Assembly (NCBI GenBank): GCA_030539395.1
Contig: JAUNSC010000035.1
Coordinates: 1-33,806, forward strand
Reading direction: 5' to 3'
Length of the DNA: 33,806 nt
From: Eubacteriales bacterium
GTDB taxonomy: Bacteria; Bacillota; Clostridia; Lachnospirales; Lachnospiraceae
Each line of letters opens with the position of its first letter. Position 1 is the stretch's first letter. Below are positions 10,606 to 32,978 of this stretch, one piece after another. A model generated the notes under the pieces. It was not told the origin of the DNA, did no database searches, and worked only from the letters and a program-made list of their open reading frames with translations. The position numbers and the translations under genes were made by a program.

Positions 10606-10620
10606 ATATCATCTTTATCT

Positions 10621-13979: not shown

Positions 13980-14049
13980 AAAATCCCCGGAATTTATATT
14001 ACATTTTTTCAGCTCATAACAACAATATAATATACTTCCAGGGGATTTT
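13980..14049. repeat. Long inverted repeat upstream of GH31
   Basis: Outer arms AAAATCCCCGGAA (13980-13992) and TTCCAGGGGATTTT (14036-14049), identical apart from one bulged base, plus inner arms TATATTA (13995-14001) and TAATATA (14028-14034). On the minus strand the arm ends GGGGATTTTATTTG, which looks like a terminator for the small peptide gene. A possible GH31 promoter (TTGTTG 14020-14025, 18-bp spacer, TAATAT 13996-14001) lies between the arms, so it could also be an operator. Confidence 0.6.
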
Positions 14050-14090
14050 CCTCTGTTAAATTCACTAAAAACTATACTATTTTGACTCTA

Positions 14091-14270: not shown

Positions 14271-14471
14271 TTCATCGCCTCCGGCTAATTCATGCTCAAT
14301 TTATGCTGATGCTTTTCTTTTTGTAATTATTATCTTTTATAATATTCAGAATAACATCCCCGCTCTTCCTGTTCAAGGAATTTATCATGTCTTCTTTCAG
14401 AAATATTTTTCTTTCTTTTCTCGTTGTGATATACTATACTGTAAGTAAATACAAAGGGATGGTGCAAAACT

Positions 14472-14846
14472 ATGAAAATAATGGCATCTGCAGAAGACTA
14501 TCTGGAGACAATTCTTATTTTACAGAACAGAATTGGAAATGTCCGTTCTATTGATATTGTACAGGAAATGGGATTTTCGAAACCGAGTGTCAGCGTTGCA
14601 ATGAAAAATCTTCGGGAAAACGGATATATCGCAGTAGATGAAAACGGACATATCACACTGCAGGATCCAGGACGGGAAATTGCAGAAAAAATCTATGAAC
14701 GTCACACGTTTTTGACAGACTGGCTGGTGCATCTTGGAGTAAATCCGCGGACGGCCGCCGAGGATGCCTGCCGGATTGAACACGTTATCAGCGAAGAAAG
14801 TTTTCAGGCTTTCAAAGATCATGTTCTGACCTATCATGAAATATAA
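14472..14846 (+). CDS. DtxR/MntR-family metalloregulator, short form
   Basis: A 124-residue protein with the N-terminal winged helix of the DtxR family (SAEDYLETIL at residues 6-15, recognition-helix region FSKPSVSVAMKNLRENGYI about 35-53) and a metal-binding/dimerisation region (about 70-124, including ERHTFLTDWLVHLG and EDACRIEHVISEE, which hold the usual His/Glu ligands). It lacks the SH3-like third domain of DtxR/IdeR, as MntR does. It likely represses metal uptake genes when Fe or Mn is plentiful. Divergent from the FeoB-associated peptide gene, so iron is favoured over manganese. ATG at 14472; ATG at 14481 is an alternative. Confidence 0.85.
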   Translation: MKIMASAEDYLETILILQNRIGNVRSIDIVQEMGFSKPSVSVAMKNLRENGYIAVDENGHITLQDPGREIAEKIYERHTFLTDWLVHLGVNPRTAAEDACRIEHVISEESFQAFKDHVLTYHEI

Positions 14847-14849
14847 AAG

Positions 14850-14879
14850 CGGTGCAACCCTACGGTTACACCGTTTTTT
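14850..14879. terminator. Bidirectional terminator, DtxR-like gene / GH3
   Basis: Stem CGGTGCAACC / GGTTACACCG (one C-A mismatch) with a 4-base loop, followed by TTTTTT on the plus strand; the minus strand reads CTTTTATATTT after the stem. It sits between convergent genes. Confidence 0.82.
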
Positions 14880-14934
14880 ATTTTAACAGAAAAACGTTAA
14901 TTTTTTCAGATACGCCCGGCTGTCTGCTCCATAT

Positions 14935-17361: not shown

Positions 17362-17374
17362 CTCTTTGCTCCTC

Positions 17375-19687: not shown

Positions 19688-19701
19688 ATGTATTTCCTCC
19701 T

Positions 19702-20583
19702 TTATCCTTTTACGCCGCCGACCACAATACCTTTTACAAAGTACTTCTGGAAAAACGGATAAACACACAGAACCGGTACCGCTCCGACCACTGCAATCGC
19801 CATACGCACACCTGCCGACGGCAGTGTTACTGCTGCCCCGCCTACCGATCCGGCACTGGTTGCCAGAAACTGAATGTTGGTCAATATCGTGTTAAGCATT
19901 GCCTGAATGCTGAATAAGGATTCATCTGTCACAAAATAAAGACTGTTTGTCCAGTCATTCCAGTAGCCTAATCCCACCATCAATGAAATGGTCGCAATCA
20001 TCGGCTTAGACAGCGGCATTACAATCTTAAACAGAATACAAAATTCTCCGCCTCCGTCTATTCTTGCCGCTTCAATGAGCGAATCCGGTATGGAGCTCTG
20101 GAAGAAAGAGCGCATCATAATAATGTAAAAAGCATTCATCATCAGCCTTGGAATGATCAGCGCCCAAATCGTGTTCTTAATTCCAAATGTCTGTGTCCAC
20201 ATCATATATACCGGAACAAGACCTCCGTTAAAGAGCATGGTAAAAAATACATAAAACGAAAAAAACGAGCGAAACGGTAATTCTTTTCTTGATAACGGGT
20301 ATGCAAACAGGATCGTAAGCATTACATTTATAAACGTTCCCGCCGCAGTCACTATAACTGTGACCACACAAGCCCTTACCAGTTTATTGCTGCTCCGAAA
20401 CAGGTACTCATATGCTCCCAGAGAAAACTTTTTCGGCCAAAAATTGTATCCGCTTTGAAGGAGCTCTGCCTCATCGGTAAAAGAAGATGATATCAGGATC
20501 ACCAGAGGGGCTACCGCCATCACTACCAGTATCACAAAAATAATATTCAAAGCAATCTGACCTGATTTTTTACTTCCAGCCAT
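19702..20583 (-). CDS. Carbohydrate ABC permease, LplC/YtcP type
   Basis: A 293-residue inner-membrane subunit with about six hydrophobic segments and the ABC-permease EAA loop around residues 170-190 (LIEAARIDGGGEFCILFKIVMPLSKP), which contacts the ATPase. The end FFQKYFVKGIVVGGVKG is typical of the CUT1 LplC/YtcP branch. AGGAGG precedes the ATG. It is 11 bp downstream of its partner permease and 14 bp ahead of GH2. No ATP-binding subunit is encoded in the locus. Confidence 0.9.
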   Translation of the reverse strand: MAGSKKSGQIALNIIFVILVVMAVAPLVILISSSFTDEAELLQSGYNFWPKKFSLGAYEYLFRSSNKLVRACVVTVIVTAAGTFINVMLTILFAYPLSRKELPFRSFFSFYVFFTMLFNGGLVPVYMMWTQTFGIKNTIWALIIPRLMMNAFYIIMMRSFFQSSIPDSLIEAARIDGGGEFCILFKIVMPLSKPMIATISLMVGLGYWNDWTNSLYFVTDESLFSIQAMLNTILTNIQFLATSAGSVGGAAVTLPSAGVRMAIAVVGAVPVLCVYPFFQKYFVKGIVVGGVKG

Positions 20584-20594
20584 TTTTCCACCTC

Positions 20595-21524
20595 CTAAAA
20601 CAGCGCACTGTCTCTATCAACCCTGCGCACAATAAAGTTCACGGCTAATATCAGCGCAAATCCTAACATTGACTGTAAAAATCCTGCTGCGGAAGCGCGT
20701 CCGATATCATTTAACATAGACAGGTTCCGGTATACGAATACATCAATCGTATCTGTAACCGACGTGATCAGTCCGGAACGCATTGGCACCTGATAGAACA
20801 ATCCAAAATCAGAATAGAACATTTTGCCGATCTGAAGAAGCACCATGGTAATTATCGTGTTTTTCAAACCCGGCAGCGTCACATGCCATACCTGGCGCAT
20901 CCGGCCTGCGCCGTCTACCATCGCAGCTTCATACAGGGAAGAGTCAATACCGATTACGGCTGCATAATATAAAATGCTTGAATATCCGAAATTTTTCCAG
21001 ATAAATACAATCGTTAAAATGTACGGCCAGTATTTTGGACTGGTATACCAACTGATCTTGTCCTTCCCCATACTTACCAGAAGGCTGTTTAAAAATCCGC
21101 TTTCCTGACCGAGGAACGCATATACGATATAAGAAACGACTACGGTCGATACCAGGTAGGGCATCAGGATCAGCGTCTGATACACTTTCTTATTCATTTT
21201 CCCTTTTAAGAAATTCAGCATGACCGCAACTGCAACCGCAATCACATTCCCAAGAATAATAAACACCAGATTGTATCCCAGCGTATTGCGCACCATATTC
21301 AACGCATCCTGTGATTTAAACAAATAAGTAAAATTTGACAATCCTGTCCACGGACTGTCCCAGATTCCTTTCGAATAGTCAAATCTCTTAAACGCAATCG
21401 CCAGTCCCGGCAAAGGCATATAATTATTAATAAAAATATAAATAAAACCAGGGATCATCATGGCATAAAGCGTCAAAATATTTTTTCTGATCTTTTTTCT
21501 TTTTCGATATACTTTTGTTTCCAT
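20595..21524 (-). CDS. Carbohydrate ABC permease, LplB/YteP type
   Basis: A 309-residue partner permease. After a basic N-terminus (KVYRKRKKIRKN) come about six hydrophobic segments. The EAA loop is YEAAMVDGAGRMRQVWHVTLPG around residues 210-231. The ending FALILAVNFIVRRVDRDSALF is characteristic of the LplB/YteP branch. Start at ATG 21524, with AGGAGG 7 bases before it; the frame stays open 25 codons further upstream but that part overlaps a terminator hairpin. It forms the membrane channel with the LplC-type permease for the substrate delivered by the binding protein. Confidence 0.9.
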   Translation of the reverse strand: METKVYRKRKKIRKNILTLYAMMIPGFIYIFINNYMPLPGLAIAFKRFDYSKGIWDSPWTGLSNFTYLFKSQDALNMVRNTLGYNLVFIILGNVIAVAVAVMLNFLKGKMNKKVYQTLILMPYLVSTVVVSYIVYAFLGQESGFLNSLLVSMGKDKISWYTSPKYWPYILTIVFIWKNFGYSSILYYAAVIGIDSSLYEAAMVDGAGRMRQVWHVTLPGLKNTIITMVLLQIGKMFYSDFGLFYQVPMRSGLITSVTDTIDVFVYRNLSMLNDIGRASAAGFLQSMLGFALILAVNFIVRRVDRDSALF

Positions 21525-21570
21525 CTGATTTCCTCCTGCCCGTTTTAAATGTAATCCCATATAAAGGGTC

Positions 21571-21616
21571 AAAAAAGTACAGTGCCACCTAAACTGCACC
21601 TGACACTGTACTTTTT
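21571..21616 (-). terminator. Terminator between binding protein and permeases
   Basis: Perfect 13-bp stem (21572-21584 with 21604-21616), 19-base loop and TTTTTT on the minus strand. It lies just after the binding-protein stop and just before the first permease, so it should give high binding-protein and lower permease expression by partial termination. Confidence 0.85.
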
Positions 21617-21646
21617 ATCAACTGCTATTCGCTGCGTTTCAAACCC

Positions 21647-23092
21647 TTACTTTTCTGCCAGAAAAGCATCCAGCTGAGCCTGTTTTGCTTCAATGATTTT
21701 TGCCAGGCCGGATGACTCCAGTTCTGCGGCTGCCTGTGCAATAATCTCATCCGGGTCCACTGCTCCGGACATCAGCGCTTTGTAATACTTATCCATCACG
21801 CTGCTGCATGCCGTATATTCATCGATTACTTCCGTGTTATCAAACACAAATCCAAGACCTTTCGAATTCACTGCTGCCGCTTTCTGTTCTTTCATCTTGT
21901 CAAAGAAATCTGCGCCGCCGTTTACTTTAAGCGGATAAGTATTATACACATACGGCAGGAACCAGTGAGCTTCCATCAGATCATAGCCCGCAGAAGCACC
22001 GTCCATTCCTTCCGGATAGGAAGCCGTTCCGTCTTCATTAACTACATAAGTCTGTCCCTCAATTCCGTTTGTCAGAAGGATCTGTATATCCTTATCTGTA
22101 TAAAGAGCTTCCATAGCTGCCCAGGCTGCATCAGGATGACTGCTGTTTGCATTTATCGCATAGCTCACACTATGGTATGAATCTGTACTTGCATAGCAGG
22201 TATCCAGGTATACGGAAATAAGACCTTCATTTTTATTCACGCCGATGCTATTAATTGCCGCAATTGCTTTATCTGCCGCAAACATGCTCTTCCAGCCTTC
22301 TGAATTACTCAGAATATCCGGCATGGTGATTCCGTCCTCGTACCATTTTCTTGCCCAGCCTGTGAACTCCAGAAAATCCTCCGCCTCAAACAGCGGCACA
22401 ACAGTTGTTCCTGTAGAAGCATATCCGCCGTCTGCCAGCACGCCAAGATACTTTTTATCTCCCATACCGTCCCATGTCCAGTTGCTGATCAGAGCCGTAC
22501 CTCCTGTCGGTACCAGTCCGTAGCGCTCCGGATATTTTTCATGTGCCTTCTGAAGAAATTCATCCAGCTCTTCCCATGTAATCTCCTGCTCGTCCTCCAG
22601 CCCAAACTCTGCTGCGATTTCCGCATCAATCATTGTCGCAAGATGTTCGCCGATGCCGATTGTATTTGGAATCGCATATAATTTTCCGTCATAGCTCAGT
22701 GCAAGCAATTCATCCTCTGTCCACTCTGCTTTAAATTCTTCACTGGCATTTGCCCAGTAATCCGTCAGATCCAAAAGCTGTCCGTTATTGACAAAGGACA
22801 AAAATGGGGTCCCGAATACCGCAAACACATCCACCTCGTCACTTGTAAGCATCAGGTTTGTCTGCTGTGCCCAGTTGCCTGTCGCAATAAATTCCAGATC
22901 CATCTGAAATCCATATTTTTCTCCTGCAATTGCATTAATTGCTGCTTCCACATCTGCGGTTGCAGCCGGTGAATCATAATTCGGAATACATACTTTTACT
23001 GTGGGAAAGTCTTCCGCCTGTACACCTGCACCTGCCAATGTCACTGTGCCTAATGCAGCAGCCAGCATCATTGTCCACTTTGTTCTTTTCAT
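21647..23092 (-). CDS. Sugar ABC solute-binding protein, LplA-like
   Basis: A 481-residue extracellular binding protein. It has an N-terminal signal sequence (KRTKWTMMLAAALGTVTLAGAGVQA) with an A-x-A cleavage site, but no lipobox cysteine. The mature part carries the segments expected of CUT1 binding proteins paired with LplB/LplC permeases (EFIATGNWAQQTNLML, DVFAVFGTPFLSFVNNGQLLDLTDYW). AAGGAGG precedes the ATG. First gene of the transport operon, 168 bp downstream of the response-regulator gene, with candidate regulator sites in the gap. The ligand is unknown but is presumably an oligosaccharide processed by the GH2 and GH3 enzymes. Confidence 0.88.
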   Translation of the reverse strand: MKRTKWTMMLAAALGTVTLAGAGVQAEDFPTVKVCIPNYDSPAATADVEAAINAIAGEKYGFQMDLEFIATGNWAQQTNLMLTSDEVDVFAVFGTPFLSFVNNGQLLDLTDYWANASEEFKAEWTEDELLALSYDGKLYAIPNTIGIGEHLATMIDAEIAAEFGLEDEQEITWEELDEFLQKAHEKYPERYGLVPTGGTALISNWTWDGMGDKKYLGVLADGGYASTGTTVVPLFEAEDFLEFTGWARKWYEDGITMPDILSNSEGWKSMFAADKAIAAINSIGVNKNEGLISVYLDTCYASTDSYHSVSYAINANSSHPDAAWAAMEALYTDKDIQILLTNGIEGQTYVVNEDGTASYPEGMDGASAGYDLMEAHWFLPYVYNTYPLKVNGGADFFDKMKEQKAAAVNSKGLGFVFDNTEVIDEYTACSSVMDKYYKALMSGAVDPDEIIAQAAAELESSGLAKIIEAKQAQLDAFLAEK

Positions 23093-23195
23093 AAATAATT
23101 ACCTCCTTTTTTCTTATATTCCGCTCATTTCTGATGATTTTATTTTATCAGCGAGGTAATTGATATACCGCCGTTTTCATATGAGATTCTATCAT

Positions 23196-23266
23196 TTTTA
23201 TGATGTTTTTTATGATATGGCCGCCGTCTTTTACCGGTTTTATGATATTTCTTATCAGTTTTATGA
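23196..23266. promoter_or_regulatory. Direct repeats TTTTATGA, candidate YesN operator
   Basis: Four exact TTTTATGA copies at 23196-23203, 23208-23215, 23238-23245 and 23259-23266. The two distal ones are 21 bp apart, two helical turns, as in AraC-family half-sites. The last overlaps the response-regulator stop codon. They lie upstream of a plausible -10 for the binding-protein gene with a poor -35, consistent with an activated promoter. Confidence 0.45.
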
Positions 23267-24529
23267 CTCTTCTTCACCGCTCCTGCGATACTCCTGCGGC
23301 GTCATCCGGGTGTACGAACGGAACATCTGTGTAAAATGTGAAAAATTGCTGTAGCCAACCTTTGATGCGATAATGCCAATAGAAAGCCCTGTTTCCTTCA
23401 GAAGCTTTTTGGCCTCCTCCATTTTTACCATCTGCATATAATCTTTAAATGTATCGCCTGTTTCTTGCCGGAACAATCTGGAGAAATATTCCTCACTGAC
23501 ATTAACCGCTTTGGCGACCTCCGTTCTTGAAAGATTTTTATTCATATTATGATCGATATATTTCAGCGCCTCCCTTATGGCAGGATGAACAGATTTTCCG
23601 ATCTTTGTTCTTCGCATTTCCGTGTAAATGCCGGATGTCTTTTCTGCATTTTCCAAACGTATATTTTCCAGGCTCCGGTAAACCGATATGAAATCTGAAT
23701 CCACTTCCGCCGAAGAGGGATACACCGCAATGGAAAAATCCATATTCCGTTCCACAAATTCATAGAATTCCATAATTTTCTGTCCCCATATTTTTCTGGA
23801 AATGCTTCCCTTTTCCGTTAATATTAAAATCCAGTAACTTTCCTCCTTCGCCGGCATTACAGCCACACGGATCTTGTATTCATCAAACAGACTTAAAAAC
23901 GTATTTTCCAGTACTTTCTTTACTTCCTGCCGACGCTTCACATACAGAAGTCTTTTCCAGCGCACCACATCAACGATCATCTGAAACACAACGCATTTGT
24001 CAAACATATATTTACACAATTCCATATAATCCTGACATATCTTATCCGCTTCCTGTTCCAGATTCTGTTCATTTTTAGTAAGCATCAGCTCCAGTATTCT
24101 GTCACTGTGCTTCTCTGTATTCTCCACAATACCTTCAAGCCGGTGAAGCCTTCTGTTCTCCTCTATTTTCTTCTTAGCTTTCAGTAAAACTTTTTCCACC
24201 GCTTCAAATTTTACAGGCTGCAGCACATAGTCAAAGCTCCCAAGATGCATGGCTTCCATAATATAATCAAATTCCGCATGGGCAGTCAGAAAAATAATCT
24301 CTAATGATCCATCCTGCGATTTAGCCCAGGTCGCCAGCTCCAGTCCGTTTTCTTCCGGCATCTCAATATCGCACAACAGCACATCCACAGGGAAATTACT
24401 CAGCAGCAGCTTCGCTTCCTTCGCCGTACAGGCAGTATAGACCTTCGTCACACCCGCCGCTTCCCAGTTCACACCATTTTTTATACTTTCTACAATTGCA
24501 GGCAGATCATCCACAATTAATACTTTCAT
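23261..24529 (-). CDS. YesN-type response regulator, receiver-AraC
   Basis: A 422-residue regulator with an N-terminal receiver domain (1-120; D54 phosphoacceptor in LLCDIEMP, Q-P in place of the more usual K-P in YVLQPVKF near residue 107), a central linker and a C-terminal AraC DNA-binding domain (about 320-420) ending YTRMTPQEYRR. Start ATG 24529 behind AGGAGG; the first bases overlap the 3' end of the kinase by 23 bp, so the two are translationally coupled. It presumably activates the adjacent transporter operon. The receiver Lys that normally follows the phosphoacceptor appears replaced by Gln (LQPVKF), worth checking against homologues. Confidence 0.88.
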   Translation of the reverse strand: MKVLIVDDLPAIVESIKNGVNWEAAGVTKVYTACTAKEAKLLLSNFPVDVLLCDIEMPEENGLELATWAKSQDGSLEIIFLTAHAEFDYIMEAMHLGSFDYVLQPVKFEAVEKVLLKAKKKIEENRRLHRLEGIVENTEKHSDRILELMLTKNEQNLEQEADKICQDYMELCKYMFDKCVVFQMIVDVVRWKRLLYVKRRQEVKKVLENTFLSLFDEYKIRVAVMPAKEESYWILILTEKGSISRKIWGQKIMEFYEFVERNMDFSIAVYPSSAEVDSDFISVYRSLENIRLENAEKTSGIYTEMRRTKIGKSVHPAIREALKYIDHNMNKNLSRTEVAKAVNVSEEYFSRLFRQETGDTFKDYMQMVKMEEAKKLLKETGLSIGIIASKVGYSNFSHFTQMFRSYTRMTPQEYRRSGEEES

Positions 24530-26237
24530 CCTGTCTTTCCTCCTGTATTCCCGGCAGTATGCATTCACTGACTGCACCATCCTTATTGCAGAACGCAAAT
24601 TCCGCTTTGGCTCCGTATAAAATCTGGCACCTGCGTTTCAGATTCTGTATGCCGACGCATTTCGTCCCCACCTTTGGTTCTTTGTTGATCTCCTTTAGTA
24701 CTTCCTGCGGATACCCCTGTCCGTTATCACTGACAATAATATCCAGATAATCCCCTTCTTCTGTGCTCAGCACAGATACTCTGGCCTTTATGATCAGCGC
24801 TATATTATTGCTTCCTGTCTTTGCATATTTTATACTGTTTTCCACAAAGGTCTGGATGGTAAGCATCGGCACCATACAGTTTTCTGTCCCCAGGGCAGCC
24901 TCGATCAGGAACTGAATTGTCCTGCCTGTCATCTGATTTCGAAGATTAACATAGTTTTCTGTAAAGTCCAGTTCCTGACGCAGCGCTGTCATTTCATTTT
25001 CTACCTGGAGCAGATAACGCAGATGCTCCGAAAGACTGATGAGCAAAGTCTGGACCTTTCCTGTCTGCTTTTCCAATACCAGCGCATTTAAGGTCTTTAA
25101 TCCATTTAAATAGAAATGCGGCTGCATCTGAATCTGCAGATACTGCATCCTGGCTTTCTGTTTTTCGATATAAGCATCATAGGTCAATACTCTCTGATGT
25201 TCCAGCTTCGTGACCATTTCCTGAAGCGTCTCATTCATCTCTCTGAGCTCTGTAAAACGCAGATCCATGATCGGAACATTTTTCACCTGATCCCTTCGTA
25301 TCTTATCCATCTCATCACGCAGACCTTCCAACGGCATCATCAGATTCTTTTTCAAAAACAGATATACGGCAAATGCAAGGACAACCGAACATGCTGTCAA
25401 AATCAGCAGAAATATCTGGGGGATATTCATATAATCCTGAAATGCATTCTTATAAACCGCACATACCCATAATGAAGTATTTCCTATCTCTTCTCCGTAT
25501 ATGTGATTCTCAGAAGAAACATAATCTGTTTTTCCTTCTGCTGCCGAGATCCTTGATACAATGTCAAATTTTTCCGCCAGGTCTTTATTCAGGAGAGCTG
25601 TGCCATTATCAACCAGACATATTTGTGTATCCCTCTGTGCATCTGCTTCAATTACCCTTCCAGCATCACCAATATTTCTGATCCCATATACCGTAACCGC
25701 TCCCTTTTTATAAGAAATGACCAGAAAAACACTCTCATCCATCGTAACACAAAACCAGTTTCTAAACACCGTTTCCTGCCGGTTGCCCAACTGCTGCAGC
25801 GCTGTACACAACCGGCTGCCCTGTTCGGGTGTCACCTGACCGTTGTTAATCTGATATAGCGGATATGTTCCGTTTCCGTAAAATATATAAAAACCATGAA
25901 GTCCCCCGTCCACCAGCATGTTGCCTTTCAGACTCTCTCTCAGTTCCCAGGCATGACTGTATTTCTGCGCCTCACTCAGATTCTGCGACAGCCGCTCAAA
26001 GTCTTCATCATTCATATAAACATCATAAAGAACTTTGCGAATTTTATCCATTCCGTCTAACGTTTTCTGGACATAATAATCTACCGCCTGCTCTTTCTTC
26101 AGGCGCCTGCTCTCCTGATAGCCGTAAATCAGAAAGCAGTCCATACACACCAGCAGTATCATCAGCGTACAGTATCCAAACAGCATCATTGCCACAATCG
26201 TCCGGTTCAACGACAGTATCTTTTTGTGTGACTTCAT
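24507..26237 (-). CDS. YesM-type sensor histidine kinase
   Basis: A 576-residue membrane kinase. Membrane segment 1 (about 13-36) and segment 2 (about 274-296) enclose an extracellular sensor domain of about 235 residues, then a HAMP-like linker, a His_kinase domain with H374 in QIQMQPHFYLNGL and an ATPase domain with SDNGQGYP. It is the first gene of the sugar locus and reads into the response regulator. By analogy with YesMN and related systems it would detect an extracellular oligosaccharide directly or via a binding protein. ATG follows a GGAGAGAG site. Confidence 0.88.
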   Translation of the reverse strand: MKSHKKILSLNRTIVAMMLFGYCTLMILLVCMDCFLIYGYQESRRLKKEQAVDYYVQKTLDGMDKIRKVLYDVYMNDEDFERLSQNLSEAQKYSHAWELRESLKGNMLVDGGLHGFYIFYGNGTYPLYQINNGQVTPEQGSRLCTALQQLGNRQETVFRNWFCVTMDESVFLVISYKKGAVTVYGIRNIGDAGRVIEADAQRDTQICLVDNGTALLNKDLAEKFDIVSRISAAEGKTDYVSSENHIYGEEIGNTSLWVCAVYKNAFQDYMNIPQIFLLILTACSVVLAFAVYLFLKKNLMMPLEGLRDEMDKIRRDQVKNVPIMDLRFTELREMNETLQEMVTKLEHQRVLTYDAYIEKQKARMQYLQIQMQPHFYLNGLKTLNALVLEKQTGKVQTLLISLSEHLRYLLQVENEMTALRQELDFTENYVNLRNQMTGRTIQFLIEAALGTENCMVPMLTIQTFVENSIKYAKTGSNNIALIIKARVSVLSTEEGDYLDIIVSDNGQGYPQEVLKEINKEPKVGTKCVGIQNLKRRCQILYGAKAEFAFCNKDGAVSECILPGIQEERQDESINCG

Positions 26238-26298
26238 TGTCTCTCTCCTTTCTCCGGTTTTTCCTATTTTAGCAAATTTCCGCCCTGATTTCTATAAC

Positions 26299-26333
26299 AC
26301 AAAAAGGCCCTGTCCTCAAACAAAGCCTTTTGT
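26299..26333 (-). terminator. Terminator of the dehydrogenase-aldolase operon
   Basis: Stem ACAAAAGGC / GCCTTTTTGT (one bulge) with a 16-base loop right after the aldolase-like gene stop; on the minus strand the right arm gives a T tract. Confidence 0.65.
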
Positions 26334-26336
26334 ATC

Positions 26337-27326
26337 TTATTTTTTCATCTCCAGCGCAACTTCTTTCAGCAGGTCTTCTGACGGTGCCCTTTTATCTCTC
26401 GCCGTCACTGCCATAATATACGAATAAACCGGCACGCCATATTCCCGGGCCAGCTTTTCAATCTTCGGAGCAACGTTCGAATGGCATCCGGATAAACCAT
26501 AGATCAAATCTTTCGGACTGAGCGGGTTCACAAACCCGTATTTTTTCATTTCCGGTTCCAGCTCCTGATCAATATAATCCAACAGGCCGTACAGATCCAG
26601 TTCCGTGCATTTTCCCATTCTCTGCAGCAGCCCGATAAGCAATTCCGTAGAACAGTTTCCGGCAGACCTTGCCATTCCCATCAGACCACAGTCCAGTGAA
26701 TCCGCCCCGGCTTCCATGGCTGCCAGCGCATTGGCCGCAGCCATGCCAAGATTATTATGTCCATGAAATCCTATCGGAATAGAGACCCGTTTTTTCACCT
26801 CTCTTATGTAACCGGAAACCTCCTGCGCAAGCATGGTTCCAGCAGAATCCATCAATGTAATTTCATCCACACCCAGCTTTTCCAGCAATTCTGCTTCCTG
26901 TGCAGCCTCTTCTGCTGTCAGAAGATAAACTCTCATCATTGCATACCGGCATTTTAGGCCCGCCGCTTTCACCATAGCGATCGCTTTTTCAGATTGTGCT
27001 CCGTTTCCTGCCAGGTTTCCCACTCTGAGAAAGTCAAGTCCGCCTTCCTTCGCTTCCTTCACAGTCTCTTCTGATGCAGCCTTATTTTGCAGGAACATGC
27101 CGAACTGTCCCCGCCCTTTATACGGCCTGAAAACCTCCAGATATTCTTTATCTGTCAGGGGAACTCCCGGCTCATAGTCACAGCCGATTCCGTGCGCATT
27201 GCCAAATTCGATTTCTGTAATCCCGCACGCCAGCATTGCTTCTATCATTGAAACCGTCAGTTTTCTGTCAAATCCAAGTCCCGCTACATTTGCTCCGTCT
27301 CTTAACGTACAATCAAACAACCTCAT
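26337..27326 (-). CDS. DRE-TIM aldolase, 4-hydroxy-2-oxovalerate aldolase-like
   Basis: A 329-residue DRE-TIM metallolyase barrel. DCTLRDGAN (R9, D10) and the metal ligands H187 and H189 in FHGHNNLGMA are present. This places it with the HMG-CoA-lyase/4-hydroxy-2-oxovalerate aldolase group rather than citramalate or isopropylmalate synthases. In DmpG and BphI a His follows LRDGM and acts as base; here the corresponding residue is Asn13, so the true reaction may differ. A likely reaction is aldol cleavage or condensation of a 4-hydroxy-2-oxo acid. AGGAGG overlaps the stop of the aminotransferase gene. The last gene of a three-gene operon, which suggests a joint pathway. Confidence 0.75.
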   Translation of the reverse strand: MRLFDCTLRDGANVAGLGFDRKLTVSMIEAMLACGITEIEFGNAHGIGCDYEPGVPLTDKEYLEVFRPYKGRGQFGMFLQNKAASEETVKEAKEGGLDFLRVGNLAGNGAQSEKAIAMVKAAGLKCRYAMMRVYLLTAEEAAQEAELLEKLGVDEITLMDSAGTMLAQEVSGYIREVKKRVSIPIGFHGHNNLGMAAANALAAMEAGADSLDCGLMGMARSAGNCSTELLIGLLQRMGKCTELDLYGLLDYIDQELEPEMKKYGFVNPLSPKDLIYGLSGCHSNVAPKIEKLAREYGVPVYSYIMAVTARDKRAPSEDLLKEVALEMKK

Positions 27327-27336
27327 TGCTTTCCTC

Positions 27337-28503
27337 CTACAGTTTATCCATAGCCGCTTTGATCCTGTCTGCCGCTTCCATCAGTGCATCCATAGAATTT
27401 GCAAAGGAATAGCGCAGACATCCTTCTCCACCTTCTCCGTAAGAACTTCCGGGAACTCCCACTACTTTCGCTTCATTTAGCAGATATTCACACATCTCCT
27501 GAGAGTTCATATTATTTTTGCTGCATTTAATCCATGCATAGAATGCTCCCGGCGGTAACTCTGCCTCAATTCCGTCAACCGCATTTAATTTTCCGATAAA
27601 CGCATTTCTGCGTTCTTCATAGCATCTTACCATCTCATCCATTTCTTTCTGGCAGTCCAAAGCCACAATTGCCGCTTTCTGTACGAACCCGCTTACGCAG
27701 GAAAGACTGTGCTGAAACAATTTATATGTGGAAACAAGGATCTCTCTCGAAGCAGCTACATATCCTAACCGCCATCCTGTCATTGCCGCACTTTTGGAAA
27801 ATCCGTTTACCGTGACCACTCTGTCCCTGATAGCGGACCTTGATGCCGGACTCAAGCTTTTTTTACCGTCAAAAACAATCCGTTCATAGACTTCATCACT
27901 TAAAAGTATTACTTTTTGATTTTCAAGCATAAATTTTTCGATATCATCCAACTCTTCTGCAGACAGAATCTTCCCGGTCGGATTATTCGGATAATTTATG
28001 ATCAGCATCTTTGTCTTTTCTGTCACTTTTTCCTTCAGCGCCTCATAAGTCACGCGGTAATGATTTTCATACGATAATTTCACCGGAACCGGTACGCCTG
28101 CTGCCGTCTGAATAATCGGCACATAAGATACCCACGCCGGATCCAGGTACAGCGCTTCATCCCCAGGATTCAATATGGCACGCACCGCCAGATAAATCCC
28201 GTTCTTACCGCCCGGAGTCACCATGATCTCATCCGGACGGCAGAGAATATCGTTTTCCTCTTTTAATTTTACCGACAGTTTTTCCATAAGCTCCGGCAGT
28301 GCCTGTCCCACCGTATAATGGGTAAACCCGGCTTTCATCTGGCGGTATGCCTCCTCTATGATGGGCGCCGGGGTATCAAAATCCGGTTCGCCTCCTGCAA
28401 GATCTACTATGTCCAGCCCGGCTGCTTTCATTTCTTTTGCTTTTTTCATAAACACCAGAGATGCTGACGGTTTTAAATTCATGATATTCTGATTCAACTG
28501 CAT
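27337..28503 (-). CDS. PLP-dependent class I aminotransferase
   Basis: A 388-residue fold-type I aminotransferase. Features: GGEPDFDTP (about 37-44), NYPNNPTG (170-177), DEVY (203-206), Schiff-base K237 in NGFSKSAAMTGWRLGY, and a C-terminal Arg in GCLRYSF. It resembles the Iγ aspartate/aromatic aminotransferases (PatA/AspC group), so it would interconvert an amino acid with its 2-oxo acid using glutamate or similar as donor. AGGAGG 8 bases before the ATG. It sits between a 2-hydroxyacid dehydrogenase and an aldolase, each 10-13 bp away. Exact substrate not assignable. Confidence 0.85.
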   Translation of the reverse strand: MQLNQNIMNLKPSASLVFMKKAKEMKAAGLDIVDLAGGEPDFDTPAPIIEEAYRQMKAGFTHYTVGQALPELMEKLSVKLKEENDILCRPDEIMVTPGGKNGIYLAVRAILNPGDEALYLDPAWVSYVPIIQTAAGVPVPVKLSYENHYRVTYEALKEKVTEKTKMLIINYPNNPTGKILSAEELDDIEKFMLENQKVILLSDEVYERIVFDGKKSLSPASRSAIRDRVVTVNGFSKSAAMTGWRLGYVAASREILVSTYKLFQHSLSCVSGFVQKAAIVALDCQKEMDEMVRCYEERRNAFIGKLNAVDGIEAELPPGAFYAWIKCSKNNMNSQEMCEYLLNEAKVVGVPGSSYGEGGEGCLRYSFANSMDALMEAADRIKAAMDKL

Positions 28504-28516
28504 ATCTGTTTCCTCC

Positions 28517-29464
28517 TCATAATCCTTTGTAGTATGATTTTACGATATTTACCGATACTTCCAGATTTCTCTGCTCTTCTTCTGTAAGCTTAATTTCCAC
28601 GATCTCTTTTGCTCCTGTCCGGTTGATGATCGTCGGGACACTGATGTATACATCCCTCAGTCCGTATTCTCCTTCCAGATAAACCGTTACAGGGTAAATT
28701 CTGTTTTCATCAAACAATATGGCCTTTACAATACTTGTCACCGAAGCTGCAATGCCAAAGGATGTATTCCCTTTTCGGTGAAACACCTCCCATCCGGCCT
28801 GCACCGTTGCTTTTCGCAGTTCTTCCGGAGTCATGGCACCTGTACGCTGTGAATTATCCTGCATCACATCAATAAGATTTTTTCCTCCCACTGCTGCCGA
28901 GTTCCAGCAGACCGTCTCACTGTCTCCGTGCTCGCCAATCACATAAATATCCACGCTTCTGGCATCTACTTCAAATAATTCTGCCACGCTTCCTGCCATC
29001 CTTGCAGTATCAAGTGCAGTTCCGCTCCCTATCACCTGATTTTTCGGAAGGCCGGAAAGTTTCCAGGCATAATAGGTCATGATATCCACCGGATTAGAAA
29101 CTACCAGAAGAATCCCTGAAAAATGATTTTCCATGATACTGCCCACTATACTTTCCATGATCCGCTCTGACATTTCCAGCATCTTTAAGCGGTCATCGGA
29201 GTTTGGATCCATCGGGGCGCTGGCTGTAATGACTGCAATGTCTGCATCCTCACAATCTCTGTAATTTCCTGCCCGTACCCTGACATTCCGGCTCATGAAA
29301 AAAATGGAATGCCGAAGATCCAGCGCTTCACCCTCTGCTTTTTCTTTATTCTGGTCGATCAATACTACTTCATCACACAAGCCCTGCTGCACGATGGAAA
29401 AAGCAGCTGCTGCCCCCACATTTCCCGCTCCCACAATTACAACCTTTGTATTTTTACCGTTCAT
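28517..29464 (-). CDS. LDH/MDH-family 2-hydroxyacid dehydrogenase
   Basis: A 315-residue NAD-dependent L-2-hydroxyacid dehydrogenase. Rossmann motif GAGNVG (12-17) with D37 (favouring NAD), R92, N124 in VSNPVD, D152 and R155, and catalytic H179 in IGEHGDS are intact. The substrate-specificity loop differs from L-lactate dehydrogenase (Q-x-P-G-E-x-R) and from malate dehydrogenase (R-x-P-G-M-x-R): it reads SAPMDPNSDDR, closer to L-2-hydroxyisocaproate dehydrogenase, so larger 2-oxo acids may be used. First gene of a three-gene operon, with AGGAGG upstream of the ATG and a divergent LysR gene. Confidence 0.78.
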   Translation of the reverse strand: MNGKNTKVVIVGAGNVGAAAAFSIVQQGLCDEVVLIDQNKEKAEGEALDLRHSIFFMSRNVRVRAGNYRDCEDADIAVITASAPMDPNSDDRLKMLEMSERIMESIVGSIMENHFSGILLVVSNPVDIMTYYAWKLSGLPKNQVIGSGTALDTARMAGSVAELFEVDARSVDIYVIGEHGDSETVCWNSAAVGGKNLIDVMQDNSQRTGAMTPEELRKATVQAGWEVFHRKGNTSFGIAASVTSIVKAILFDENRIYPVTVYLEGEYGLRDVYISVPTIINRTGAKEIVEIKLTEEEQRNLEVSVNIVKSYYKGL

Positions 29465-29535
29465 GGTTTCTGCGCCTCCTCTTTACTTTTCTGATATTAT
29501 CATTTTGCAAAATCTCTCTTTTGCTATCCACCGTT

Positions 29536-29571
29536 TTTGTGTCATTTTCTACCATGTTTGTGACATTCTCT
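29536..29571. repeat. 21-bp direct repeat in the LysR divergent region
   Basis: TTTGTGTCATTTTCT (29536-29550) and TTTGTGACATTCTCT (29557-29571) are 21 bp apart and differ at three positions. They lie between the dehydrogenase operon and the LysR gene, the usual location of LysR-type binding sites. Confidence 0.45.
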
Positions 29572-29676
29572 CCTGCCAGATATCATTTTTCTGTTAAAGC
29601 TGAGCACAAAATCAGCAGATTTATGACCCAGGAAGCTGCAAAATAAAAAAAACATTCATTTTTTAAAGGAGCTGCT

Positions 29677-30573
29677 ATGGATACCAAAAATCTGATCACC
29701 TTTATCACATTTGCCCGGGAAAAATCTTATCTGAAAACTTCCCTGAAGCTGAATTACGCTCCCTCCACTCTGTCGGAACACATATCACAGTTGGAACAGG
29801 AGCTGCAAATTAAGCTGGTGGAGACCGTCAACCGAAAAAGTGTTCTTACCCGGCAGGGAGAAGCTTTCCTTCCTTATGCCCAGAATATTCTTAACAGCAT
29901 TACCATAGCAAAAGATGCGCTGGATAATACCGAAGCCCTAAAAGGTACTGTCACAATCGGAACCATCGAATCTCTGGCGGCTTATAAACTGGAATCACTT
30001 TTTCTTGATTTTTTAAATCATTATTCTCATGTCAATCTGATCATTAAATCCGCAAACAGCGCCACTTTGCCCCAGCTTTTAAAAAACAGAGAATTTGATA
30101 TTGTATTTCTTTATGACTGTCAGATCACCAGCGATCCCGATCTTAACAGTGAGCTTCTCTTTAAAGAAAATCTGTGTTTCTGCACCTCTCCCGGGCACCG
30201 TCTTAGCAAAAAAAAAGAGATCGTACCGGCAGATCTTCGGCATGAGACCTTCCTGTACCAACAGGAGGATTGCTGTTATTATGATATTTTTCAAAATTTG
30301 ATTGAAAAAGAGCATCTGCAGATCCGCCGCAGACTGCAGACGGATAATCCGACCCTGATAAAAAAGTATGTCGCTAAAGGCAAAGGTATCTCCCTCCTGC
30401 CCAAAAGCATGACAGAGGAAGATGTCCTTATGAATAAGCTTTGTTACCTGAACTGGACCGGAGAAAGGATGATCCTCAACGGGCAGATGCTGACTTTAAA
30501 AAACCGCTGGCAGTCTGCCGCTCTTGCAGAATTTATCCGCTTTTCCAGATCCTACTATCAGCAGATTCCCTGA
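29677..30573 (+). CDS. LysR-family transcriptional regulator
   Basis: A 298-residue LysR-type regulator. The winged helix-turn-helix (about 1-60; SYLKTSLKLNYAPSTLSEHISQLEQEL) is followed by an effector-binding domain (about 90-295). AAAGGAG is 6 bases before the ATG. Divergent from the dehydrogenase/aminotransferase/aldolase operon with a 212-base gap that holds a 21-bp direct repeat, so it probably controls that operon in response to a pathway metabolite. Its 3' end overlaps the convergent gdhA gene by 16 bp. Confidence 0.88.
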   Translation: MDTKNLITFITFAREKSYLKTSLKLNYAPSTLSEHISQLEQELQIKLVETVNRKSVLTRQGEAFLPYAQNILNSITIAKDALDNTEALKGTVTIGTIESLAAYKLESLFLDFLNHYSHVNLIIKSANSATLPQLLKNREFDIVFLYDCQITSDPDLNSELLFKENLCFCTSPGHRLSKKKEIVPADLRHETFLYQQEDCCYYDIFQNLIEKEHLQIRRRLQTDNPTLIKKYVAKGKGISLLPKSMTEEDVLMNKLCYLNWTGERMILNGQMLTLKNRWQSAALAEFIRFSRSYYQQIP

Positions 30574-31904
30574 CACAGCATGGCGTCTGCAACCTTTTCA
30601 AAGCCCGCCAGATTAGCACCTGCTACATAATTGCCAGGACAGCCGTATTTTTTTGCAGCCTTATCGATATTACAAAAAATATCTTTCATAATGTCATGGA
30701 GCCGTTCGTCTACTTCTTCTTTTTTCCATGATAAGTGTTCTGCGTTTTGCACCATTTCCAGAGAAGATACAGCAACACCGCCTGCATTAACTGCCTTAGA
30801 CGGCAATACCGTTACTCCCTTTTCCATCAAAAGATCCATAGCCTCCTGCGTCGTCGGCATATTTGCCACCTCAATCAGAATCCGGCTGTGCCCTTCTTCC
30901 AGAATTCTTTTTGCATCTTCTTCGTGTATTTCATTTTGCGTCGCACAGGGCATGTAAACATCTGCTTTTACTTTTCCCCACGGCTTTTCACCCGGGTAAA
31001 ATTCTGCATGGAACTTTTTTGCATAATCCTTTACACAGTCTTTGTTGGAAGTACGCATTTCCAACATATAATCAATTTTTTCTCCTGTCACTCCATCCGG
31101 ATCGTAGATATAACCGTCCGGACCGGACAGCGTAACCACTTTTCCGCCCAGTTCATCAATTTTTTTGACCACTCCCCAGGCAACATTTCCAAAACCTGAA
31201 ACAGCAAATACAGTATCTTTTATCTGTCTTCCGATTGTTTTAAAATATTCCTGAGTAAAATAAACCGCTCCGTATCCCGTTGCCTCCATTCTTCCAATAG
31301 AGCCTCCGTACGAAAGACCTTTTCCGGAAAGTGCACCTGCTTTATATGAACCACAGATGCGTTTATACTGGCCATACATATATCCGATTTCTCTCGCTCC
31401 GACTCCCATATCTCCCGCCGGACAGTCTGTATCCGGTCCGATATAGCGGAACAATTCTGTCATATACGACTGGCAGAATCTCATGATCTCGGCCTCTGAT
31501 TTCCCTTTGGGGTCAAAATCTGCGCCTCCCTTTCCCCCTCCGATTGGCATTCCTGTCAGAGAATTTTTAAATATTTGTTCAAATCCAAGGAATTTTATTA
31601 CACTGCTGTTTACATTCGGCTGGAAGCGCAGCCCTCCCTTATACGGACCGATACTGCTGGAAAACTGAATTCTGTATCCCCGGTTCACACGCACCCTGCC
31701 CTGATCATCTACCCACGGCACACGGAAAACCACTGACTTTTCCGGCTCTACCAGGCGCTCCAGAATTCCCGCTTTTTCATACTTCTCATCGCTTTCGACG
31801 ACAGGACGCAGCGAATTCAATACTTCTTTTACACATTGAAGAAATTCCGGTTCATCTCCGTCTTTTTCCTCTACCTGCTGAATAATCCGATCTACATATG
31901 ACAT
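30558..31904 (-). CDS. gdhA: NADP-type glutamate dehydrogenase
   Basis: A 448-residue hexameric glutamate dehydrogenase, class I, interconverting 2-oxoglutarate plus ammonia and glutamate. Signature residues: GGGKGGADFDP (catalytic K125) and CPAGDMGV (D165), with the nucleotide-binding segment VFAVSGFGNVAWG about residue 235. The ATG at 31904 was chosen over a GTG three codons upstream because GAGGTGG is 8 bases before it. Length and the GDMGVGARE segment match the NADP-linked bacterial form. Its product, glutamate, could feed the nearby aminotransferase. No terminator follows; it runs into the convergent LysR gene. Confidence 0.93.
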   Translation of the reverse strand: MSYVDRIIQQVEEKDGDEPEFLQCVKEVLNSLRPVVESDEKYEKAGILERLVEPEKSVVFRVPWVDDQGRVRVNRGYRIQFSSSIGPYKGGLRFQPNVNSSVIKFLGFEQIFKNSLTGMPIGGGKGGADFDPKGKSEAEIMRFCQSYMTELFRYIGPDTDCPAGDMGVGAREIGYMYGQYKRICGSYKAGALSGKGLSYGGSIGRMEATGYGAVYFTQEYFKTIGRQIKDTVFAVSGFGNVAWGVVKKIDELGGKVVTLSGPDGYIYDPDGVTGEKIDYMLEMRTSNKDCVKDYAKKFHAEFYPGEKPWGKVKADVYMPCATQNEIHEEDAKRILEEGHSRILIEVANMPTTQEAMDLLMEKGVTVLPSKAVNAGGVAVSSLEMVQNAEHLSWKKEEVDERLHDIMKDIFCNIDKAAKKYGCPGNYVAGANLAGFEKVADAMLCQGIC

Positions 31905-31959
31905 TTTATCCACCTCATTTGTTATTTGATATCTTTATTTTAAGATGGATAAAAATAAG

Positions 31960-32004
31960 CAGCTCCGGTATTTCCGAACACCATACCCGGAAATACCGAA
32001 GCTG
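31960..32004 (-). terminator. Terminator of the YitT-family gene
   Basis: Seventeen-base arms (31960-31976 and 31988-32004) with one mismatch and an 11-base loop, followed on the minus strand by CTTATTTTTATCC. It separates the YitT-family gene from gdhA. Confidence 0.8.
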
Positions 32005-32036
32005 AAAAAAATTTTTGTTTCACAATATCATATTTA

Positions 32037-32900
32037 TTATCCTATCTGTATATTCCGGAATCCTTCTCCGTGTACTTCACTGGATTCCATAATGATTACA
32101 AACGCCCTTTCATCCGCAGCTTTTGCCGCCTGTCTTACCCGGTACATTTCTTTTGTACTGCAGGCGCACATAACAACTTCTCTTTTTTCCCCGCGGTATC
32201 CACCAACAGCATTTATGATCGTACTTCCCCGATGACACGTCTCGTCAATTGCATCACACACTTTCTGACCGTAATCTGTCACGATCAGCGCCATCTTGCC
32301 TGCATTCATACCATACATTATTTTATCCATTACCGCTGCCAGCAAAAAGTTTACAATCATACCATAAATAATACCGTCAATATCCTTAAGCAAGATTCCT
32401 CCCAGCAGCACAATACCCATATCCGCAAAGAATACAATTCTGCCCATAGAAAGATACGGTTTCTTCTTTTTAATGGCCATTACAATAAAATCCATACCTC
32501 CGGTAGAGGTATTATTCATATAAATAACCGCAAATCCCAGTCCGTTAAACACACCTGTACACAATGCCGCCAGCATCCTGCTGCCCCCATAGACGGGAAA
32601 TAAAGGCGCAAGATAATCAATAAACAGAGAAGAAATCAGCATGCATCGTATGGAACTGATAAAAAATTTTTTCCCCAGAAGCCGAAAACAGACAAAGGCA
32701 ACCGGAATATTTATAAAAATTATGGAAAGGCCCACGGGAAGCCCTGTAAAACGGTACAAAATAATTGCCAGGCCTGTAAATCCACTCATTGGAAAATCTG
32801 CCTGAACCGCAAAATTATAGACACCTGCCGCAATAAAAATACTTCCGACAATTTCTGCCAGAAGCTGTCTGACTAATTGATTTGTATTCTTTCTATTCAT
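32037..32900 (-). CDS. YitT-family membrane protein (DUF161/DUF2179)
   Basis: A 287-residue polytopic membrane protein. Five or so hydrophobic segments (about 12-185) are followed by a soluble C-terminal DUF2179 domain (about 200-287; KMALIVTDYGQKVCDAIDETCHRGSTI). Function of the family is not settled; some members affect transport or stress responses. Start ATG 32900 behind AGGAG at 9 bases; a TTG three codons upstream is less likely. The gene has its own terminator and lies next to perR, but in the opposite direction. Confidence 0.85.
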   Translation of the reverse strand: MNRKNTNQLVRQLLAEIVGSIFIAAGVYNFAVQADFPMSGFTGLAIILYRFTGLPVGLSIIFINIPVAFVCFRLLGKKFFISSIRCMLISSLFIDYLAPLFPVYGGSRMLAALCTGVFNGLGFAVIYMNNTSTGGMDFIVMAIKKKKPYLSMGRIVFFADMGIVLLGGILLKDIDGIIYGMIVNFLLAAVMDKIMYGMNAGKMALIVTDYGQKVCDAIDETCHRGSTIINAVGGYRGEKREVVMCACSTKEMYRVRQAAKAADERAFVIIMESSEVHGEGFRNIQIG

Positions 32901-32978
32901 CCGTATCAACTCCTATTAGTATTTTTCCGCCTATTCCTAATATAACCTGAGATACCATAAAATACAACGTCTCTATGC

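What the first reader, a model, noticed from the sequence alone, without database searches (positions are those of the whole stretch)
26337..29464. Three-gene dehydrogenase-aminotransferase-aldolase operon, a candidate new pathway
Tight spacing (10-13 bp), a shared terminator and a divergent LysR gene make this a unit. Chemically the three could link an aldehyde plus pyruvate, a 4-hydroxy-2-oxo acid, its amino acid and its 2-hydroxy acid, for example synthesis or breakdown of gamma-hydroxy amino acids such as 4-hydroxyisoleucine, 4-hydroxyglutamate or homoserine. I know of no described operon with this exact combination.
Basis: inference. Interest (0 to 1): 0.75.

Follow-up and report, generated by a model that had tools for sequence, protein, structure and literature searches.

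The report
Dehydrogenase, aminotransferase, aldolase operon
A bacterium of the Lachnospiraceae kind carries a compact three-gene operon that probably strips the amino group from an unusual hydroxylated amino acid, splits it to pyruvate and an aldehyde, and re-balances redox, using an aldolase with an altered active site; the exact trio was seen in no other genome examined.

Summary
In detail: three tandem minus-strand genes (28517-29464, 27337-28503, 26337-27326), gaps 13 and 10 bp, ribosome sites, a terminator-like hairpin, a divergent LysR gene. An extra glutamate dehydrogenase (30558-31913) adjoins. The trio was not found in other genomes searched (396 of the family, 7 of the genus, 370-390 of the class), so literally the genes do not stay together. 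But each half recurs with non-homologous partners. The aldolase belongs to a DmpG-like subfamily whose catalytic H21/Y291 are N/H; a 2-hydroxyacid dehydrogenase of another fold is next door in 7 of 11 other members, against 0 of 73 control loci. The three closest aminotransferases (54-57%) share a gene run with an RraA-fold pyruvate aldolase, one also with glutamate dehydrogenase and divergent LysR. The dehydrogenase is lactate-dehydrogenase-like with Met at specificity position 102. Best reading: breakdown of a gamma-hydroxy amino acid to pyruvate plus aldehyde, NADH re-oxidised by the dehydrogenase. Substrate, direction and activity are untested. Rivals: aspartate to lactate via oxaloacetate; synthesis (6 of 73 control loci, some with polysaccharide genes, hold a sister aldolase and a distant aminotransferase). 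No structure model could be obtained.

The parts
28517..29464 (-). First gene: Ldh_1-family NAD-dependent L-2-hydroxyacid dehydrogenase (LDH-like, Met at position 102)
   Evidence: TIGR01771 367.7 bits against cut-off 303.55; PF00056/PF02866; catalytic R109, D168, R171, H195 kept, Q102 -> M85, A236 -> G224 (position numbers by the recalled LDH convention)
27337..28503 (-). Second gene: class I PLP aminotransferase, aspartate-aminotransferase-like subgroup
   Evidence: PF00155 6.6e-64; closest solved chains are aspartate/aromatic aminotransferases; three closest relatives share a gene run with RraA-fold pyruvate aldolases
26337..27326 (-). Third gene: DRE-TIM class II pyruvate aldolase, N/H subfamily of the DmpG/BphI-like family
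   Evidence: PF00682, and DmpG communication domain just under its cut-off, 26.1 of 27; TIGR03217 and PRK08195 below cut-off; metal residues D10, H188, H190 and R9 kept; H21 -> N13, Y291 -> H282
29677..30573 (+). Divergent LysR-type regulator
   Evidence: PF00126/PF03466; intergenic space 29465-29676
30558..31913 (-). Glutamate dehydrogenase, a second copy in this genome; possible functional partner (2-oxoglutarate recycling), separated from the operon by the LysR gene on the other strand
   Evidence: PRK09414 662.7 bits against cut-off 536; the other copy, G000:C41, is 60% identical, and one copy in each of the 7 other genus members is 54-60% identical
26302..26331 (-). Terminator-like hairpin after the aldolase gene
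   Evidence: fold

Best explanation
An accessory catabolic operon. The aminotransferase moves the amino group of a gamma-hydroxy amino acid (most likely one with an acidic side chain, of the 4-hydroxyglutamate kind) to 2-oxoglutarate, giving a 4-hydroxy-2-oxo acid and glutamate. The metal-dependent aldolase splits the 4-hydroxy-2-oxo acid through a pyruvate enolate into pyruvate and an aldehyde (glyoxylate in the 4-hydroxyglutamate case). The neighbouring extra glutamate dehydrogenase regenerates 2-oxoglutarate from glutamate, yielding NAD(P)H, and the LDH-like enzyme re-oxidises NADH by reducing pyruvate (or another 2-oxo acid of the pathway) to a 2-hydroxy acid. The divergent LysR protein probably controls the operon. 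Shown: gene order, operon-like signals, families, residues, neighbour patterns. Inferred: every reaction, the substrate, the direction and the regulation.
For: Operon-like signals. Aldolase subfamily: a 2-hydroxyacid dehydrogenase gene (PF00389/PF02826 or PF02615; in the window PF00056/PF02866) is the next gene in 7 of 11 other members and lies in the cluster in one more (L115), against 0 adjacent in 73 control loci of sister aldolases; the sister sequence L034 also has a PF02615-like gene beside it (33% match). In three of the 11 loci a 2-hydroxy-3-oxopropionate-reductase/HIBADH-like gene and in two of these a glycerate kinase is present, as if to dispose of a C3 product of aldol cleavage; L112, L115 and L032 carry what look by eye like tripartite or TRAP transporter genes, i.e. 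uptake. Aminotransferase: the three closest relatives (54-57%, two genomes) lie in same-strand gene runs with an RraA-like aldolase (PF03737, 3.2e-38 to 2.3e-46), next to it in L154 and L155, one gene away in L153 with an SDF dicarboxylate symporter between; L154 also has glutamate dehydrogenase, divergent LysR, 5-oxoprolinase genes and a D-2-hydroxyacid dehydrogenase. In the tree the window enzyme lies among these (weak, 88/77). Aldolase, aminotransferase and LDH-like gene have no close relative in the 7 other genus members (some only 78-81% complete), and the glutamate dehydrogenase is a second copy. At the position of BphI Leu89, towards which the alkyl chain of the aldehyde extends (PMC3962088, passages), the window has Gln80 by the alignment; Arg132 and Arg220 stand where His/Tyr-type enzymes have Met and Ala, though the Tyr/His group shares Lys132 and Arg220. 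Both fit a polar or acidic aldehyde.
Against: The trio occurs once; the two neighbour patterns come from different loci and were combined by inference. None of the 11 other N/H aldolase loci has a close relative of this aminotransferase (the broken locus L119 has a 27% class I aminotransferase about 1.3 kb away on the other strand). Seven aminotransferases at 44-53% identity (L156-L161, L164; L161 and L164 with only 3-4 kb seen) have no RraA-like or N/H aldolase beside them; L160 has a 32% aldolase about 8 kb off. In 6 of 73 control loci a Tyr/His-type sister aldolase shares the locus with a class I aminotransferase (34-38% to the window's; next gene in L049 and L051), and those of the six I looked at (L037, L044, L047, L049, L051) hold what look like polysaccharide or nucleotide-sugar genes, a biosynthetic setting. 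Both catalytic positions H21 and Y291 are changed, so aldolase activity itself is not assured. The glutamate dehydrogenase scores as NADP-type, usually biosynthetic (recalled). No transporter gene was recognised in or beside the operon. Met102 does not favour a charged 2-oxo acid for the dehydrogenase.
Confidence: 0.42

Rival explanations
1. Aspartate fermentation: the aminotransferase turns aspartate into oxaloacetate, the aldolase-like enzyme only decarboxylates oxaloacetate to pyruvate, the LDH-like enzyme makes lactate, and glutamate dehydrogenase recycles 2-oxoglutarate.
For: The aminotransferase is closest to aspartate aminotransferases and keeps the Lys (VTPGGK) that is recalled as a side-chain carboxylate contact in Thermus AspAT. 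[quoted passage not shown] The scheme is redox-balanced.
Against: Relatives of the aldolase lie with glycerate kinase, tartronate-semialdehyde-reductase-like and 2-hydroxyacid dehydrogenase genes, which oxaloacetate decarboxylation does not need. The NF041091 aspartate aminotransferase cut-off is not reached (357.4 of 550).
Confidence: 0.18
2. Biosynthesis: the aldolase adds pyruvate to an aldehyde, the aminotransferase makes a gamma-hydroxy amino acid and the dehydrogenase a 2,4-dihydroxy acid, for export, a surface polymer or a secondary metabolite.
For: The aldol-addition plus transamination sequence works in vitro with other enzymes (PMC8482765, abstract). Six of 73 control loci hold a Tyr/His-type sister aldolase and a class I aminotransferase (34-38%), in five inspected cases among polysaccharide-like genes. 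The dehydrogenase loop (Met102, Gly236, one-residue insertion) suggests bulkier 2-oxo acids than pyruvate.
Against: No peptide-synthetase, sugar-transfer or export gene was recognised among the 8 proteins of 23261-32909 scanned. The nearer relatives of both enzymes lie with uptake and catabolic genes, and none of the six polysaccharide-type loci has a 2-hydroxyacid dehydrogenase beside the aldolase.
Confidence: 0.2
3. The three genes share regulation but not a pathway: for example the LDH-like enzyme is simply the cell's fermentative lactate dehydrogenase, co-transcribed with two amino-acid genes.
For: Its 57-64% relatives show no aminotransferase or aldolase gene beside them in 8 loci (flanks of at most 1.5 kb), and the only other match in the genome listed has Arg at position 102, i.e. 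malate-dehydrogenase-like, so no other L-LDH of this family was seen (assembly 93.9% complete).
Against: Tight spacing and a stop overlapping the next ribosome site; recurrence of 2-hydroxyacid dehydrogenases beside this aldolase subfamily.
Confidence: 0.15

Closest known systems
4-hydroxy-2-oxovalerate aldolase DmpG/BphI (PDB 1NVM, 4JN6)
   Same: DRE-TIM barrel with R17, D18, H200, H202 equivalents, match over nearly the whole length including the C-terminal domain
   Different: H21 and Y291 replaced by Asn and His; below TIGR03217 and PRK08195 cut-offs; no aldehyde dehydrogenase among the neighbours scanned
Aminotransferase gene runs with an RraA-fold (HMG/CHA-type) aldolase: L153, L154, L155
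   Same: Same aminotransferase type with a class II pyruvate aldolase, in one case with glutamate dehydrogenase and divergent LysR
   Different: The aldolase has another fold; no LDH-family gene
Tyr/His-type DmpG-like aldolase with class I aminotransferase in polysaccharide-like clusters (L037, L044, L047, L049, L051)
   Same: DmpG-like aldolase and class I aminotransferase in one cluster
   Different: Other aldolase subfamily, aminotransferase only 34-38% identical, no 2-hydroxyacid dehydrogenase, biosynthetic-looking company
Canonical bacterial L-lactate dehydrogenase (TIGR01771; PDB 4LMR)
   Same: Family score above cut-off and all catalytic residues
   Different: Met instead of Gln at specificity position 102, Gly at 236, loop one residue longer
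Hydroxyisocaproate dehydrogenase (HicDH) clade
   Same: Position 102 neither Gln nor Arg and an insertion in the 102-109 loop, the two hallmarks given in PMC4109310 (passages)
   Different: Passes the L-LDH model; no chain named hydroxyisocaproate dehydrogenase is among the 60 best shown of 151
In vitro aldol addition-transamination cascades to gamma-hydroxy-alpha-amino acids (PMC8482765, abstract)
   Same: Same two-step chemistry, read backwards in my best explanation
   Different: Assembled from other enzymes in the laboratory, not a natural operon

Membership tests
4-hydroxy-2-oxovalerate aldolase (TIGR03217 / DmpG) | score above curated cut-off | tested here: not met
   173.3 of 286, and PRK08195 195.4 of 229; the five other N/H members scanned are also below both
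4-hydroxy-2-oxovalerate aldolase (TIGR03217 / DmpG) | Arg17 and metal ligands Asp18, His200, His202 (roles recalled) | tested here: met
   R9, D10, H188, H190 invariant in the 35-row alignment; equivalence
4-hydroxy-2-oxovalerate aldolase (TIGR03217 / DmpG) | catalytic His21 (recalled) and Tyr291 (BphI Tyr290, PMC3962088 passages) | tested here: not met
   Asn13 and His282; all 10 rows with Asn13 and a readable second position have His; 36 of 91 rows are His,Tyr and 37 Tyr,His
4-hydroxy-2-oxovalerate aldolase (TIGR03217 / DmpG) | partner acylating acetaldehyde dehydrogenase | tested here: not met
   none among the 8 proteins of 23261-32909 scanned; the contig ends at 33806, and the rest of the window was judged by eye only
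L-lactate dehydrogenase | TIGR01771 score and catalytic R109, D168, R171, H195 | tested here: met
   367.7 against 303.55; residues
L-lactate dehydrogenase | Gln at position 102 | tested here: not met
   Met85; also Met in 7 of 7 aligned relatives at 57-64%, of 9 listed
HicDH clade | non-Gln/Arg 102 plus loop insertion | tested here: met
HicDH clade | phylogenetic place with HicDH | not tested
   no tree with HicDH was made
Class I aminotransferase, aspartate type | PF00155, PLP lysine and carboxylate arginine | tested here: met
   PF00155 6.6e-64; NGFSK and CLRYSF motifs (roles recalled)
Class I aminotransferase, aspartate type | aspartate aminotransferase equivalog cut-off | tested here: not met
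   NF041091 357.4 of 550
Gamma-hydroxy amino acid catabolic module | activity on a gamma-hydroxy amino acid and its oxo acid | not testable with these tools
   needs enzyme assays

The most novel reading that the evidence does not exclude
A dedicated fermentation route for gamma-hydroxy amino acids in a Lachnospiraceae-like bacterium, in which a DRE-TIM aldolase of an uncharacterised subfamily with a changed catalytic pair (Asn/His instead of His/Tyr) stands in for the RraA-fold aldolase of sister loci, coupled to a Met102 2-hydroxyacid dehydrogenase and an extra glutamate dehydrogenase that keep it redox- and nitrogen-balanced.
Probability: 0.28. Interest if true: 0.62.

Novelty: new variant of a known kind. 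Interest (0 to 1): 0.42.

Why it matters
If right, it gives a testable genetic basis for the breakdown of hydroxylated amino acids by anaerobes of this family, and it sets out a pyruvate-aldolase subfamily whose active-site pair differs from that of DmpG and BphI. Such aldolases are of use for making 4-hydroxy-2-oxo acids. The presence of aldolases of two unrelated folds beside the same kind of aminotransferase would be a case of non-orthologous replacement.

Tried and rejected
A second copy of the trio: not found in the 397-genome family draw, own genome included, in 8 genus genomes, in class draws of 391 (aminotransferase) and 371 (aldolase), nor among the 80 loci kept of 384 found in the species-genome scan (checked by BLAST). 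Limits: the class draws share genomes with the family draw; listings are capped; at most 4 to 5 candidates per genome were scored in the large draws; the scan used six short peptide patterns. Nearest things to a pair in the family draw: G322 (32% aldolase and 47% aminotransferase about 8 kb apart) and G253 (44% LDH and 54% aminotransferase about 20 kb apart).

Genera of G253 and G136 searched for more aminotransferase-RraA loci: none beyond those known (2 and 3 genomes). DmpG-DmpF style meta-cleavage pathway: rejected for lack of a recognised partner and for the changed catalytic residues. Idea that the RraA-associated aminotransferases and the window form their own clade: not supported; the tree puts the non-associated group L156-L159 among them. 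Idea that the genus has an ordinary LDH: the 33-35% hits that were aligned carry Arg102. Literature searches that showed no natural operon of this kind: (listings only, except the four papers named). The engineered broad-specificity LDH that I recall (Q102M, A236G) was not found.

It also led me to correct 'adjoin' to 'share a gene run' for L153.

A structure model was wanted (alignment A1) to see the pocket, but none could be obtained.
Full report
Observation. I take the operon as real by anatomy; transcription is not shown.

Enzymes. The first gene passes the L-lactate dehydrogenase model (367.7 bits, cut-off 303.55) and keeps the catalytic residues, but carries Met at position 102 and Gly at 236 (window residues 85 and 224), with one extra residue in the loop compared with the LDH chain 4LMR. 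Seven of seven aligned relatives at 57-64% share Met and Gly; nine such relatives were listed, two of which did not enter the alignment (one was dropped by my simple ORF caller, one had no locus). PMC4109310 (passages) states that canonical LDHs have Gln102 and MDHs Arg102, and that the HicDH clade has other residues plus insertions there. That engineered LDHs with Met102 and Gly236 accept branched 2-oxo acids is recalled; the search did not find it. The second gene is a class I aminotransferase close to aspartate aminotransferases but under every NCBIfam cut-off among the 25 of 74 families shown. The third is DmpG-like: it matches solved 4-hydroxy-2-oxovalerate aldolases over nearly its whole length (4JN6 7.8e-31, 1NVM 3e-27) but lies under the cut-offs of both NCBIfam models.

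An aldolase subfamily. In an alignment of 91 distinct rows of the aldolase and its relatives, the two positions equivalent to DmpG His21 and Tyr291 split the family: 36 rows His/Tyr, 37 Tyr/His, 5 His/Phe, 1 His/His, 10 Asn/His (the window among them), and two rows readable at the first position only (one Asn, one Tyr). The Asn rows form one clade (11 rows, 100/96), with the Desulfofustis sequence L034 as sister (100/100, 29 of the 91 rows). Subfamily members share Arg220 and Lys132 (Arg in the window), where His/Tyr rows have Ala and mostly Met; the Tyr/His rows share Lys132 and Arg220 too. The window departs from otherwise nearly fixed positions such as 49, 104, 108, 132, 167, 285 and 289. 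At the positions of BphI Leu87 and Leu89, which line the aldehyde pocket (PMC3962088, passages), the window has Phe78 and Gln80 by my reading of the alignment. I read this as a pyruvate aldolase with a changed, more polar aldehyde site; no activity is shown.

Neighbours of the aldolase subfamily. Eleven other members were at hand: L111-L119, L031, L032 (L116 and L033 are the same place; L113 and L114 come from one genus and are near-identical; L111 and L116 come from one genome; L118 and L119 are broken). A 2-hydroxyacid dehydrogenase of other families (D-isomer type PF00389/PF02826, or PF02615) is the next gene in 7 of 11 (L111-L114, L116-L118) and lies in the cluster in one more, L115; none in L119, L031, L032. 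As a control, of 73 loci with sister aldolases (34 Tyr/His, 34 His/Tyr, 4 His/Phe, 1 Tyr with the second position unread; 73 of the 76 loci L035-L110) 0 have such a neighbour, and 1 of 1030 ORFs matches at all (the queries came from the first group, so distant dehydrogenases may be missed, and the control genomes are mostly from other phyla). A tartronate-semialdehyde-reductase/HIBADH-like gene occurs in three loci and a glycerate kinase in two of these. None of the 11 has a relative of the window's aminotransferase above 27% identity.

Aminotransferases with sister aldolases. Of the 73 control loci, 6 hold a class I aminotransferase (34-38% to the window's), all with Tyr/His aldolases; it is the next gene in L049 and L051. 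The five whose neighbours I printed (L037, L044, L047, L049, L051) show, by eye, sugar-nucleotide, aminotransferase and methyltransferase-like genes of surface-polymer clusters; L051 also has what looks like an RraA-like gene. So an aldolase-aminotransferase pairing is not unique to the window, and this counts for the biosynthetic rival.

Neighbours of the aminotransferase. Its three best relatives (57, 56, 54%; two genomes) each share a same-strand gene run with an RraA-like gene (PF03737), of the family that holds HMG/CHA class II pyruvate aldolases, though two of the three reach only the unnamed PRK06201 cut-off and the third none. L154 reads aminotransferase, RraA-like, glutamate dehydrogenase, with a divergent LysR gene followed by 5-oxoprolinase subunits and a D-2-hydroxyacid dehydrogenase; L155 has the RraA-like gene next to the aminotransferase and an Nramp-like transporter; L153 has GntR, RraA-like, SDF dicarboxylate symporter, aminotransferase. 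Seven relatives at 44-53% (L156-L161, L164) lack an RraA-like gene in the stretch seen, L160 having a distant aldolase 8 kb away. The tree puts the window among the RraA-associated ones but not as a clean clade (88/77).

Distribution. The aldolase, aminotransferase and LDH-like gene have no close relative in the 7 other genus members; the best there are 28-29%, 41% (partial) and 35%, and three of the seven are only 78-81% complete. The glutamate dehydrogenase is a second copy, 60% identical to the genome's other copy. In the family draw of 396 other genomes I saw no two of the three genes side by side (judged from listed places; the nearest were G322 and G253, named under Tried and rejected). 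The locus is thus accessory, and the trio is a singleton in what I could search.

Mechanism. I favour breakdown: transamination to a 4-hydroxy-2-oxo acid, aldol cleavage to pyruvate and an aldehyde, glutamate dehydrogenase recycling 2-oxoglutarate, and the LDH-like enzyme re-oxidising NADH. For an acidic substrate speak the AspAT-like aminotransferase, the RraA/SDF/5-oxoprolinase company of its relatives and the cationic residues of the aldolase; 4-hydroxyglutamate is my guess, not a result. The rivals are aspartate to oxaloacetate to pyruvate to lactate, since class II pyruvate aldolases decarboxylate oxaloacetate (PMC5065237, passages), and synthesis of a gamma-hydroxy amino acid. Sequence alone cannot separate them.

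Novelty. All three enzyme kinds are known; this combination and an Asn/His aldolase subfamily were not found in my literature searches, which cover open-licence papers only and were read mostly as listings. I rate it a new variant of a known kind, of moderate interest.

Noticed in passing
relatives in the alignment (L035-L110 and others): Across the DmpG-like family the two catalytic positions swap reciprocally: His/Tyr in 36 of 91 rows, Tyr/His in 37. The Tyr/His group (in polysaccharide-like clusters in the loci inspected; several ORFs of about 650 aa suggest fusions) looks like a class with an exchanged dyad.
   Followed up: partly
L154 (G253:C43), 6826-14620: Aminotransferase, RraA-like aldolase and glutamate dehydrogenase run, divergent LysR, then 5-oxoprolinase subunits PxpB, PxpC, PxpA and a D-2-hydroxyacid dehydrogenase: a candidate pathway for a 5-oxoproline-like compound.
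   Followed up: partly
L112:7068-7892 and L115:10102-10974: DUF6282 proteins (PF19799) in clusters with N/H aldolases, D-2-hydroxyacid dehydrogenases and transporter-like genes: a functional clue for DUF6282.
   Followed up: no
L156, L157, L158: The 45-53% aminotransferase relatives lie near a gene that looks by eye like a prephenate-dehydratase-like protein; a second neighbour pattern of this aminotransferase group.
   Followed up: no
window 29536-29569: Between the LDH-like and LysR genes a direct repeat, TTTGTGTCATTTTC at 29536 and TTTGTGACATTCT at 29557 (positions checked): a possible LysR operator.
   Followed up: no
window 30558-31913: A second glutamate dehydrogenase, only 60% identical to the genome's other copy, convergent with the LysR gene.
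   Followed up: partly
window 11488-26237: Looks by eye like a carbohydrate locus: large glycosidase-like ORFs and sugar ABC transporter parts, with a histidine kinase and an AraC-type response regulator (Pfam); ordinary.
   Followed up: no
window 31960-32004: Long hairpin (20 pairs counted) followed by T-rich DNA between the YitT and glutamate dehydrogenase genes, minus strand; likely terminator.
   Followed up: no
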